This document shows, piece by piece, positions 17,783-21,316 of a DNA stretch of 64,000 nt. This DNA is from Nocardioides solisilvae (GTDB lineage Bacteria; Actinomycetota; Actinomycetes; Propionibacteriales; Nocardioidaceae). Position 1 is the stretch's first letter, and each line of letters begins with the position of its first letter. Below the pieces are notes generated by a model. That model searched no databases. It was not told where the DNA came from and saw only the letters and a program-made list of their open reading frames with translations. A program made the translations under genes and the position numbers. The stretch covers positions 682,001 to 746,000 of the forward strand of contig NZ_QHKX01000002.1 of assembly GCF_003194625.1 (NCBI RefSeq), in the 5' to 3' direction.

Positions 17783-18706
17783 TCACTGGCCCGAGGGGAG
17801 GCCGGCGAAGAGGTCGTCCTCCAGGCCGTCGGGGCCCAGCGGCCCGGGCGTGCCCTTGGCGAGCCGGTAGTGCTCGACGCCGAAGGCCGCCGCCCCGACG
17901 TTGTTGGAGAGCGCGAAGAAGGGCCCGTCGGTGGTGATCTGCGTGGCGTGCGCGCGCAGGGCGTCCATCTTGGCGCCGACGAAGTCGCTGGCGTCGACGG
18001 CCGCGGAGAGGTCCTCGTCGGGGCGGGCGAAGGGCATCGGGCCGTCGGGGTCGATCCCCTCGAAGGTGGTCGTGTCGCCCGCCGCGCGCAACGCCCGCAG
18101 CCCCTCGCGCATCCGCGACTCCGACATCGCGCTCCAGTAGACCTTGGCGACGTCGTGGGCCGGGCCGAGGTCGCGGCGGTACGACGGCACCGCAGCCAGC
18201 GCGACGGCGTAGGTGGCGACGCGGTGGGCCTGGACGTGGTCGGGGTGGCCGTAGCCGCCGAACTGGTCGTAGGTCACCAGCACCTGGGGGCGCACCTCGC
18301 GGACGACGGCCACCAGGTGGTCGGCGGCCTCGGTGAGGTCGGCGCGCCAGAAGGCGTTCTCGTGCACCTCGTCGGCGGCCACCGCGTGGCCGTCGGCGTG
18401 CCACTTCATGCCCGAGTCGCGGTAGGTGCCGAAGCCGCCGAGGAACCTGTGGTCGGTCACCCCGAGGGCCTTCATCGCGGCCGCCAGCTCGCCGCGGCGG
18501 TGCTCGCCGAGCCCGTCCTCGCGGTCGGCCGCGAGGTGCTCGAGCTCGGGGACCAGGATCTCGCCCTGCTCGCCCGCGGTGCAGGTGACCAGGGTGACGC
18601 CGCGTCCCTGCGCGACGTACTTCGCCATGGTCGCGCCGTTGCCGATGGACTCGTCGTCGGGGTGGGCGTGGACGAGCAGGATGCGCTGGTCGGGCTGGGG
18701 GCTCAT
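17783..18706 (-). CDS. mshB: Mycothiol biosynthesis deacetylase MshB
   Basis: Zinc-dependent LmbE/PIG-L-family enzyme removing the acetyl group from GlcNAc-inositol, step 3 of mycothiol synthesis, in the cytosol. 307 aa. Zinc ligands are visible as HAHPDDES (His15 and Asp18) and [12 protein letters not shown]; the family's YDQFGGYG loop is intact. ATG 18706 has TAGGCT 8 nt upstream (18715-18720), overlapping the stop of the previous gene. Presence of mshB marks the host as a mycothiol-producing actinobacterium. Confidence 0.95.
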
Positions 18707-18717
18707 GGTCGACCAGC

Positions 18718-19050
18718 CTAGTCAGCGGCCGGGCGCCGGCCCTCCGCGCGGTCGTCCAGGAGGTCTGGGCGCTTCACCCGGCGGGGCCCGTCCGGCAGCG
18801 GCGGCGCGGCCGGGGGCGCGACGGCGCCGCCCCCGTCGCCGGCCTCCTCGTCGAGCCAGCCGTCGTGCTCCTCGACCAGCATCTCGAGCACGGGGACGGG
18901 GGCGTCGCTGAGCAGGGCCCACGGGTGGTCCTCGTCGTCGTCCTCCCCCGCGAGGCGCTCCCGCTCCAGCGTCGCCGACCAGCCGTCGCGCTCGAGCCGC
19001 GCGAGGACGGCGCGCGCGTCGTCCTCGTCGTAGAAGATCGCCCGCGCCAC
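18718..19050 (-). CDS. Small acidic hypothetical protein
   Basis: 110 aa from GTG 19050. The N-terminal half is acidic and looks folded ([23 protein letters not shown]), followed by a Gly/Ala/Pro-rich linker and a basic tail. No family is recognised. It lies between an oxidoreductase and mshB on the same strand, and its TAG stop is the first half of the mshB -10 hexamer. Confidence 0.65.
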
Positions 19051-19090: not shown

Positions 19091-20161
19091 CTACGCCTGC
19101 GTCGGGTCGTCGCCGACCTGGACGAGGGTCTTGCCGAAGTTGCGGCCCGAGAGCATGCCGCGGAAGGCCTCGGGGGCGTTCTCGAGGCCGCGGGCCACGT
19201 GCTCGCGGTAGCGGACCGAGCCGTCGGCCACCCAGGCGGCCATCTCGCGCTGGAAGTCGGCCTCGTGCTCGGCGACGAACTCGTCCTGGATGAAGCCGCG
19301 CACGGTGAGGCTGAGGGTGAGCACCTTGTTCATGAAGCCGGGGAGCCGGTCCGGGCCCTCGGGGGCGGAGGTGGCGTTGTAGTTGGCCACGAGCCCGCAG
19401 ACCGGGATCCGGGCGAACTTGTTGAGCCGGCGCGCGACGGCCTCGAAGACCGGCCCGCCGACGTTCTCGAAGTAGACGTCGATCCCGTCGGGGGTGGCGG
19501 CGGCGAGGTCCTCGCGGAAGGTGGGCGAGCGGTGGTCGACGGCGGCGTCGAAGCCGAGCTCCTCGGTGAGGGCGCGACACTTCTCCTCCCCGCCAGCGAT
19601 GCCGACGGCCCGGGCGCCCTTGACCTTCGCGACCTGACCGACCGCCGAGCCGACAGGGCCGGTGGCGGCCGCGACGACGACGGTCTCGCCCGGCTGCGGA
19701 CGGCCGATCTGCAGCAGGCCGGCGTACGCCGTGAAGCCGGGCATGCCGAGCACGCCGACGGCCGTGGAGATCGGGGCCGCGGCGGGGTCGATCGAGCGCA
19801 TGTGGCGGGCGTCGACGACCGCGTGGGTCTGCCAGCCGGTGTAGGCGAGGACCAGGTCGCCCGGCGCGCGGCGCTCGGAGCGCGACTCGACGACCTCGCA
19901 GACGGTCGCGCCCTGCATCACGTCGCCGACCTGCCAGGGGGCGGCGTAGGACTTGGCGTCGCTCATCCGACCGCGCATGTAGGGGTCGAGGGAGAGGTAG
20001 ACGGTGCGCAGCAGCACCTGGCCCTCGGCGAGCTCGGGCAGGTCGGTCTCGACGAGCTCGAAGACCGAGTCGTCGGGCTCGCCCACCGGACGGGCGGCCA
20101 TCCGCACCTGGGTGCTGCGGGCGGGACGGCTGGACGTGGCGTTGTCAGGAGTCTGGGTCAC
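19091..20161 (-). CDS. NADP-dependent MDR-family oxidoreductase (CurA/LTB4DH-like)
   Basis: 356 aa medium-chain reductase lacking the zinc ligands of alcohol dehydrogenases. Seen: the N-terminal catalytic region with YLSLDPYMRGRMSD, the nucleotide-binding loop AAATGPVGSAVGQVAK, and FENVGGPVFEAV, all typical of the leukotriene B4 dehydrogenase/curcumin reductase subgroup that reduces alkenal/enone double bonds with NADPH. GTG 20161 has TAGTCT 7 nt upstream (20169-20174). The physiological substrate is not indicated; no operon partner. Confidence 0.9.
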   Translation of the reverse strand: MTQTPDNATSSRPARSTQVRMAARPVGEPDDSVFELVETDLPELAEGQVLLRTVYLSLDPYMRGRMSDAKSYAAPWQVGDVMQGATVCEVVESRSERRAPGDLVLAYTGWQTHAVVDARHMRSIDPAAAPISTAVGVLGMPGFTAYAGLLQIGRPQPGETVVVAAATGPVGSAVGQVAKVKGARAVGIAGGEEKCRALTEELGFDAAVDHRSPTFREDLAAATPDGIDVYFENVGGPVFEAVARRLNKFARIPVCGLVANYNATSAPEGPDRLPGFMNKVLTLSLTVRGFIQDEFVAEHEADFQREMAAWVADGSVRYREHVARGLENAPEAFRGMLSGRNFGKTLVQVGDDPTQA

Positions 20162-20185
20162 GGCCCCGAGACTACGGTGGCGGGC
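20162..20185. promoter_or_regulatory. Divergent leaderless promoters with overlapping -10 elements
   Basis: Only 24 bp separate a leftward GTG from a rightward ATG. The leftward -10 TAGTCT occupies 20169-20174 and the rightward -10 TACGGT occupies 20173-20178, sharing 2 bp. Each is 7 nt from its start codon. Both promoters cannot be bound by RNA polymerase at the same time, and each -35 region must lie inside the other gene. Confidence 0.65.
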
Positions 20186-21316
20186 ATGGACCGACCAGCA
20201 GGCGACCGGGCGGTGGGTGGGGTCCACCTGCGCCGCAGCGAGGAGCACGTGGCGGAGGTCGAGGCCCTCGCCGGGGTGCTCGGCGGCCGGGCCGGCCTGC
20301 CCGAGCTGCTGGGCGCCCTGAAGTACCGGGCCCGGCCGTCGCCGGTGGGACGGCTGCTGGGGCGCGCCGTCGACCGCGCCATCGCCTTCGACTCCTACGA
20401 CCAGCGCGACCCGGTCTGGTGGCCGCAGGGGATCACCACCTCCGCCGACGCCGACCCCTCCGGGCTCGTCGAGGGCCGCCGGCTCGCGGTGGTCACCTGG
20501 TACGCGAAGGAGAAGGACGGGGTGCGCCGCGGCTCGCGGGTCACCTTCCTCGACCTCGACACGCTCCGCTACCGGCACGTGCTGCTGGTCGACGCCCGTT
20601 TCGACGACCGCGGCGAGCTGACGCTGTCGGGGGTGCGGGTCCACGCCGGCGGGATCGCCTGGGCGGGGCCGTGGCTGCACGTCGCCGCGACCGGTCGCGG
20701 CTTCCTCACCTTCCGGGTCGACGACCTGCTCCGGGTGCCGGGCGACGACGAGCGGCCCGACGAGATCGGCCTCTTCGGCGACCGGGTCGCCTCGTTCGGC
20801 CACCACCACGTGCTGCCCGTCCGCTACGCCCACCAGGCGCACGCCGACGAGGGGCACGAGCGGCTGCGGTACTCGTTCCTCTCGCTCGACCGCTCCCCGC
20901 TGCCCGACGCTCCCCCCGACCTGCTCGCCGGGGAGTACGGGCGGGGCCGACAGACCACCCGCCTGGCCCGGCTGGAGCTCGACCCCGACACCTGGCTGCC
21001 GGCCACCGACGAGGAGGGGCTGTCGCGTCCGGCGCTGCACGACGGGGGCGTCCTGGGGATGCAGGGCGCGGTGCGGGCCCGCGGCCGGCACCACGTGAGC
21101 GTCTCCCACGGCCCCTGGGTGCCCGGGTCGGTCTTCACCGGCTCGCCCGGGGCGCTGCAGCGCCACCGGTGGGCGCTGCCGATGGGGCCCGAGGACCTGT
21201 CGTTCTGGCCGTCCGACCGGCCGGGCGAGGACCGCCTGTGGTCGGTGACCGAGCACCCGCGACGCCGCTGGGTCGTCTCGGCGCGACGCTCCTGGTTCGA
21301 CCGGCGCCGTTCCTGA
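20186..21316 (+). CDS. Conserved-looking protein of unknown function
   Basis: 376 aa, no signal peptide or membrane segment. The body is rich in Trp, His, Arg and Asp with repeated beta-type segments such as RLAVVTWYAKEKDG, GGIAWAGPWLHVAATGRG and ASFGHHHVLPVRY, suggesting a beta-propeller-like or other all-beta fold, but no family is recognised. ATG 20186 has TACGGT 7 nt upstream. The gene end falls in a short tandem repeat shared with the convergent thioesterase gene. Confidence 0.65.
   Translation: MDRPAGDRAVGGVHLRRSEEHVAEVEALAGVLGGRAGLPELLGALKYRARPSPVGRLLGRAVDRAIAFDSYDQRDPVWWPQGITTSADADPSGLVEGRRLAVVTWYAKEKDGVRRGSRVTFLDLDTLRYRHVLLVDARFDDRGELTLSGVRVHAGGIAWAGPWLHVAATGRGFLTFRVDDLLRVPGDDERPDEIGLFGDRVASFGHHHVLPVRYAHQAHADEGHERLRYSFLSLDRSPLPDAPPDLLAGEYGRGRQTTRLARLELDPDTWLPATDEEGLSRPALHDGGVLGMQGAVRARGRHHVSVSHGPWVPGSVFTGSPGALQRHRWALPMGPEDLSFWPSDRPGEDRLWSVTEHPRRRWVVSARRSWFDRRRS

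What the first reader, a model, noticed from the sequence alone, without database searches (positions are those of the whole stretch)
20162..20185. Divergent genes 24 bp apart with -10 elements overlapping by 2 bp
The leftward TAGTCT (20169-20174) and rightward TACGGT (20173-20178) share two bases and each lies 7 nt from its start codon. RNA polymerase cannot occupy both. The MDR oxidoreductase and the unknown protein may thus be in mutually exclusive transcription, a very compact switch-like arrangement.
Basis: partly seen in the sequence, partly recalled or inferred. Interest (0 to 1): 0.65.

Follow-up and report, generated by a model that had tools for sequence, protein, structure and literature searches.

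The report
Two-way promoter shared by divergent genes
Two back-to-back genes in a Nocardioides-like actinobacterium appear to share one tiny 10-base promoter core from which RNA polymerase could start in either direction, right at each gene's start codon; some related species have the same kind of core beside different neighbour genes.

Summary
A CurA-like reductase gene (GTG at 20161, minus) and an uncharacterised gene (ATG at 20186, plus) are 24 bp apart. TAGTCT and TACGGT share 20173-20174 and each ends 7 nt from its start codon. They are the only TANNNT motifs on either strand within 19850-20500. TANNNT 6-7 nt before a start codon is the signature of leaderless transcription and peaks sharply at motif-naive starts in the genus. 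The rightward box is present in 56 of 59 orthologous loci. The core AGACTACGGT is identical in the three genomes found with this gene pair, while the spacers changed. The shared-TA geometry occurs at 12 of 59 orthologous loci with three kinds of leftward gene and at three other gene pairs in 2 Mb.

Best reading: a bidirectional promoter (known kind, 23-bp class) in a doubly leaderless form. A 'mutually exclusive switch' is not supported: steric exclusion is likely, but five published E. coli bidirectional promoters were too weak at basal level to compete, no -35-containing promoter was found, and the gene partnership is not conserved. There are no transcript data.

The parts
19091..20161 (-). 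CurA-like NADPH-dependent MDR reductase gene (356 aa, GTG start), predicted leaderless
   Evidence: NF058644 531 bits over the 440 cut-off; ADH_N_2 from residue 18; start agrees with the TANNNT spacing and keeps the N-terminal residues that homologues share
20186..21316 (+). Uncharacterised 376-aa protein gene (ATG start), predicted leaderless; strand-rich fold, perhaps a beta-propeller
   Evidence: 129 of 147 same-genus genomes have a match; no Pfam or NCBIfam hit; AlphaFold2 mean pLDDT 87.8; Foldseek matches weak, three at E <= 0.001
20169..20178 (.). 10-bp bidirectional promoter core AGACTACGGT (pattern ANNNTANNNT)
   Evidence: identical in the three genomes found with this gene pair, inside 15 consecutive invariant columns
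20169..20174 (-). leftward -10 element TAGTCT, 7 nt from the GTG start
   Evidence: TANNNT leaderless signature
20173..20178 (+). rightward -10 element TACGGT, 7 nt from the ATG start
   Evidence: TANNNT 6 or 7 nt before a start in 56 of 59 distinct orthologous loci
20173..20174 (.). shared self-complementary TA dinucleotide
   Evidence: sequence
20162..20168 (.). leftward spacer between -10 and start codon (7 nt here, 6 nt in the two relatives)
20179..20185 (.). rightward spacer between -10 and start codon (7 nt in all three)

Best explanation
The 24-bp interval is a bidirectional promoter. One 10-bp core (ANNNTANNNT) offers a TANNNT -10 element to RNA polymerase on each strand, with the two boxes sharing a central TA. 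Polymerase bound in either orientation is predicted to start just beyond its -10 box, on the first base of the GTG or ATG, so both mRNAs are leaderless and the interval holds only promoter core plus spacers. Shown by sequence: coordinates, boxes, spacing, conservation, genus-wide peak, recurrence at other loci. Inferred: transcription in both directions, start sites at the start codons, one polymerase at a time. The likely outcome is low, largely independent basal expression of both genes rather than a switch.
For: Geometry. Only two TANNNT in 650 bp. TANNNT at spacer 6 (49), 7 (47) and 8 (9) of 538 divergent-gene starts called without the motif, against 0-4 at every other distance from 0 to 30. 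Rightward box in 56 of 59 distinct orthologous loci with N termini of varying length. CurA homologues outside the pair carry their own TAGGGT/TAGGTT 6-7 nt before the start in 3 of the 9 printed (L177, L183, L189). Core identical in the three genomes with the pair while spacer sequence, leftward spacer length (7/6/6) and leftward start codon (GTG/GTG/ATG) vary. Shared-TA spacing (-2) at 12 of 59 orthologous loci with three kinds of leftward gene, and in 4 of 34 divergent pairs with TANNNT on both sides in 2.46 Mb, counting the window.
Against: No TSS data for this species. The left box TAGTCT is less common among leaderless hexamers (3 of 218) than TACGGT (9 of 218). In one search, 5 of 59 loci also show a match at the 15-17 control spacing and 3 of 59 show no box. 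Of the 9 CurA homologues printed outside the pair, 6 (L190-L195) have CANNNT, not TANNNT, 6-7 nt before the start (read by eye). My own gene caller, with or without the motif, put the starts of this pair at 20248/20249. The fresh 400-kb sample held one qualifying pair and it was not shared-TA. The pantothenate kinase/GlmS shared-TA case is not kept in relatives: at least 44 bases separate the aligned ends in the other 44 of 45 genomes.
Confidence: 0.8

Rival explanations
1. Switch: overlapping -10 elements make expression of the two genes mutually exclusive, so raising one lowers the other in a physiologically used way.
For: The boxes share their TA, so two polymerases should not bind at once (inference). 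In E. coli, strong activation of one direction of a bidirectional promoter could repress the other (PMC12825309).
Against: In the same paper basal activity of all five promoters was too low to compete. No -35-containing promoter is found in 19900-20450. The leftward gene differs between species, and CurA is the nearest leftward hit at 3 of 59 loci.
Confidence: 0.12
2. Only the rightward promoter is real. The left box is a coincidental TANNNT and the CurA gene is transcribed from elsewhere or starts at a downstream codon.
For: The rightward box is present in 56 of 59 loci whatever the left gene; TAGTCT is a rarer hexamer; 6 of 9 CurA homologues elsewhere lack TANNNT at that place.
Against: There is no other minus-strand TANNNT between 19850 and 20500. 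The left box is unchanged in three genomes although the left spacer changed length and the start codon changed type. The next in-frame start codons (residues 19 and 21) would remove residues that homologues share.
Confidence: 0.1
3. A neutral by-product of genome compaction: two working leaderless promoters were pushed together until they met, and the overlap itself has no consequence for expression. This can hold together with the best explanation.
For: The arrangement comes and goes: 9 changes on the tree, at least 5 forced by supported branches, with clustering only modestly stronger than shuffled labels (mean 11.2; 22 of 500 shuffles as low). The pantothenate kinase/GlmS case is not conserved.
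Against: Shared-TA is over-represented relative to other spacings (3 of 22 pairs at one of 42 spacings with the window left out, binomial P 0.015, a crude null) and is present in all three CurA loci. This argues for function of the promoters, not for an effect of the overlap.
Confidence: 0.35

Closest known systems
Bidirectional promoters of Warman, Grainger and colleagues (E. coli, Salmonella; PMC12825309, PMC10268837)
   Same: Near-symmetrical -10 region read in both directions; divergent TSSs 7-25 bp apart, with 18, 10 and 23 bp common. Shared TA gives 23 bp with 6-nt spacers by my arithmetic; 25 bp is predicted here with 7-nt spacers.
   Different: Here both mRNAs are predicted to be leaderless, so the promoter is the whole intergenic region. 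The core is TANNNT without a visible -35, in about 75% GC DNA. The 18-bp class was not seen in the sample: 0 of 24 start pairs with gaps of 10-21 bp had both boxes.
TA-led leaderless genes of Actinobacteria (PMC3160421; M. tuberculosis TSS map PMC3898074)
   Same: TANNNT about 12 bp before the start codon, no conserved -35, TSS at the start codon. A figure legend of the M. tuberculosis paper shows divergent prpD (Rv1130)/Rv1129c, both leaderless, and calls closely juxtaposed divergent promoters a common feature (passages seen).
   Different: The passages I saw do not describe two leaderless genes whose -10 boxes share bases.

Membership tests
Bidirectional promoter (Warman definition) | -10 elements on opposite strands overlap at key positions | tested here: met
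   shared TA at 20173-20174
Bidirectional promoter (Warman definition) | divergent TSSs 7-25 bp apart | not testable with these tools
   25 bp predicted from the start codons (20161 and 20186); no TSS data
Bidirectional promoter (Warman definition) | RNA made in both directions from the same short DNA | not testable with these tools
   needs in vitro or in vivo transcription
TA-led leaderless gene (both genes) | TANNNT ending 6-8 nt before the start codon | tested here: met
   7 nt on both sides; genus peak; 56 of 59 orthologous loci for the right gene
TA-led leaderless gene (both genes) | mRNA 5' end at the start codon | not testable with these tools
   no transcript data
Regulatory toggle / mutually exclusive switch | polymerase competition strong enough to couple the two outputs | not testable with these tools
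   indirect evidence is against it
Regulatory toggle / mutually exclusive switch | conserved partnership of the two genes | tested here: not met
   CurA is the nearest leftward hit at 3 of 59 orthologous loci

The most novel reading that the evidence does not exclude
The upstream side of this widespread gene is a two-way leaderless promoter core that successive neighbours use: a NUDIX gene, a CurA reductase and a PIG-L family gene each sit with their start codon 6-7 nt from the same kind of shared-TA core. A 10-bp element would thus supply a ready-made promoter and start position to whatever gene arrives, which links genome rearrangement to instant, coupled expression.
Probability: 0.25. Interest if true: 0.68.

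Novelty: new variant of a known kind. Interest (0 to 1): 0.5.

Why it matters
The bidirectional promoters in the papers I saw are enterobacterial. Here the whole gap between two genes is a 10-bp shared core plus two spacers, and the start codons are the predicted transcription starts, so promoter position, start codon and neighbour gene constrain each other base by base. Because shared-TA cores are found beside different leftward genes in related species, the locus gives natural replicates for testing whether competition between polymerase orientations matters in actinobacteria. It also suggests a simple annotation rule (ANNNTANNNT with starts 6-8 nt on either side) for correcting start codons of divergent genes.

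Tried and rejected
Tried: (1) sigma-70 promoter with -35 and terminators: none in 19900-20450. (2) A first codon-usage gene caller over-extended the left gene, as did a second. A version with start conflict resolution was used for the genus statistics, but it still placed the starts of this very pair at 20248/20249, without the motif and with it. The pair was therefore counted by a scan that does not choose starts. (3) The 18-bp TSS class: not seen (0 of 24 start pairs with gaps of 10-21 bp had both boxes). (4) Fresh sample of 400 kb from two further genomes: one double-TANNNT pair, spacing 34, so no support and no refutation. (5) Pantothenate kinase/GlmS: both genes matched in 45 of 45 genomes, close and divergent by their coordinates, but the 25-bp gap is seen in one genome only. 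(6) Function of the right-hand protein: weak fold matches only, no function assigned. (7) Conserved co-regulation of CurA with its partner: rejected, because the partner differs.

Selection notes: the 59 loci are distinct loci among those whose DNA I held, which are best matches of three searches, not all genomes with the gene (129 of 147). L026, L027 and L030 are the three without a box. The match list was capped and each genome had three candidates scored. One further short listed match (G087 contig 26, query 118-163, E 2.4e-5) also covers the interval but lies on another contig than that genome's orthologue (contig 1); I did not read it. The alignment for the fold used 20 of the 27 loci plus the window protein: L006 gave a stop codon at the listed coordinates, L010 was dropped with it untested, and L007, L008, L011, L018 and L024 were never put in.

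Full report
OBSERVATION. The 24 bp between the GTG at 20161 (minus) and the ATG at 20186 (plus) contain TAGTCT (20174-20169, minus) and TACGGT (20173-20178, plus). They overlap by TA at 20173-20174 and each has a 7-nt spacer to its start codon. The coordinates and spacings in the finding are right. No other TANNNT lies on either strand between 19850 and 20500.

GENOME. The window lies in a 3.58-Mb genome.

GENES. Left: CurA-like NADPH-dependent reductase, NF058644 at 531 bits against a cut-off of 440. Right: a 376-aa protein without Pfam or NCBIfam match at E up to 1, matched in 129 of 147 same-genus genomes. Its predicted fold is confident (mean pLDDT 87.8) and strand-rich. The Foldseek matches are weak (three at E <= 0.001, best 1.3e-4; TM-scores to the query at most 0.41 in the 50 rows shown). 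Many of them are proteins that I recall as beta-propellers (WD40, neuraminidase), so a propeller is plausible and function is unassigned.

LEADERLESS PROMOTERS. I sampled 2.06 Mb (100 stretches of 20 kb from ten genomes, the window's own included, plus the window) and called genes without using any upstream motif. TANNNT sits 6 nt (49), 7 nt (47) or 8 nt (9) before 538 divergent-gene starts, against 0-4 at every other distance from 0 to 30. Over all genes, 218 of 1798 starts have TANNNT at 6-8 nt; TACGGT ranks 9th (9) and TAGTCT 21st (3) among these hexamers, and the start codons of the 218 are 139 ATG and 79 GTG. This matches the published TA-led leaderless signal of actinobacteria (PMC3160421, passages) and the M. 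tuberculosis TSS map, where TANNNT precedes 73% of primary TSSs and no conserved -35 was identified (PMC3898074, passages).

CONSERVATION OF EACH BOX. In 59 distinct orthologous loci (those whose DNA I held, not all genomes with the gene) 56 have TANNNT 6 or 7 nt before an in-frame start of the right-hand gene, though the N-terminal length varies by dozens of codons. Control spacings 3-5, 9-11, 12-14 and 15-17 give 0, 0, 0 and 5 of 59. For CurA, 9 homologues outside the pair were printed: 3 (L177, L183, L189) have TANNNT 6-7 nt before the start and 6 (L190-L195) have CANNNT there (read by eye).

CONSERVATION OF THE OVERLAP. All three have the same gene pair and the identical core AGACTACGGT. 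The left spacer is 7, 6 and 6 nt with different sequence, the right spacer 7, 7 and 7, and the left start codon GTG, GTG and ATG. An alignment shows 15 consecutive invariant columns over the core.

RECURRENCE AT THE SAME PROMOTER. Of the 59 loci, 12 have the two -10 boxes sharing TA (spacing -2), with starts 22-24 bp apart: 8 with a NUDIX gene on the left (by tblastn with the L053 gene; L053 and L020 confirmed as PF00293), 3 with CurA, and 1 with a PIG-L family gene (L175, PF02585), a homologue of window 17783-18706. Seven further loci have TANNNT on both sides at spacings of 1 to 83. On a tree of the right-hand protein the shared-TA state needs 9 changes, at least 5 forced by supported branches, and it is only modestly clustered (shuffled mean 11.2; 22 of 500 shuffles as low); many forks are weak and some long branches are flagged by the tool. 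The three CurA rows sit with three rows whose nearest left hit is the short hypothetical gene, so an older shared promoter kept through a change of partner and repeated gain are both possible.

RECURRENCE ELSEWHERE. Scanning divergent pairs of candidate starts with coding signal on both sides and gaps up to 120 bp, 33 of 698 in 2.06 Mb have TANNNT at 6-8 nt on both sides. Four share TA: the window; L076 (UDPGP / 5-formyltetrahydrofolate cyclo-ligase); L121 (YciA-like thioesterase / LytR-CpsA-Psr); and L149 (type I pantothenate kinase / GlmS, whose MCGIVGY start leaves little doubt about the start codon). With 400 kb from two further genomes the total is 34 pairs and still four shared-TA. Of 17 start pairs with gaps of 22-26 bp, 4 carry the in-register core (3 of 16 without the window); shuffles of the same intergenics average 0.016. 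With the window left out, 3 of 22 pairs at one of 42 spacings gives binomial P 0.015; the 22 were counted from the spacing list and the null is crude. Against a conserved role: pantothenate kinase and GlmS genes each matched in 45 of 45 genomes, but outside G027 at least 44 bases separate the aligned ends; those alignments begin at kinase residues 1-7, so true gaps may be up to about 18 bases shorter, still above 25.

MECHANISM. The best reading is a bidirectional promoter in the sense of Warman et al.: one symmetrical core that polymerase can use in two orientations. TSS distances of 18, 10 and 23 bp are the common ones in E. coli (PMC12825309: first of six parts of the text plus passages seen); the Salmonella paper defines the class by 7-25 bp (PMC10268837, passages). 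Sharing TA (-12T paired with -11A) gives 23 bp with 6-nt spacers and 25 bp with the 7-nt spacers here; this arithmetic is mine, and the supplement with the geometry was not seen. The original 2021 paper is not held and nothing was read from it.

SWITCH OR NOT. Steric exclusion follows from the overlap, but exclusion matters only if occupancy is high. [quoted passage not shown] strong activation of one direction could repress the other. Here no -35-containing promoter is found, I identified no regulator, and the partnership is not conserved. I therefore expect two weak, nearly independent promoters, with coupling only if one direction is activated.

NOVELTY. Six paper searches listed, by title and start of abstract, no paper on divergent genes that are both leaderless and whose -10 boxes share bases. 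Searches showed 20 of 79, 141, 190 and 21 papers, and the library lacks most subscription journals, so this is a statement about those listings only. I file it as a new variant of a known kind: bidirectional promoter, doubly leaderless, with different leftward partners in different species.

The count of CurA homologues was mended to 6 of 9 lacking TANNNT; the capped list and the unread G087 match were added; the NUDIX and PIG-L names were checked.

Noticed in passing
L160:1665-2692 (G163): The CurA homologue in G163 matches in two overlapping pieces (query 14-169 and 138-356) and its first open frame ends at 188 codons, so it looks frameshifted or carries an assembly error.
   Followed up: no
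window 20186-21316 and orthologues: A well conserved family of about 376 aa, widespread in the genus, with no Pfam or NCBIfam match and a confident strand-rich predicted fold.
   Followed up: partly
window 18718-19050: Short hypothetical gene with no Pfam match; homologues are found beside the PIG-L family gene at many of the orthologous loci.
   Followed up: no
L169 (G199), junction of the NUDIX gene and the P0001 orthologue: The shared-TA core here is AGCCTAGGCT, a perfect palindrome, so both -10 boxes are identical (TAGGCT).
   Followed up: no
L149:2396-2422: Pantothenate kinase and glmS start 25 bp apart with a shared-TA core in one genome; in the other 44 of 45 same-genus genomes searched the two genes lie further apart.
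   Followed up: yes
G087 contig 26, 153390-153433: An 85% match to query 118-163 of the junction, away from that genome's P0001 orthologue; it might be another promoter of the same kind.
   Followed up: no
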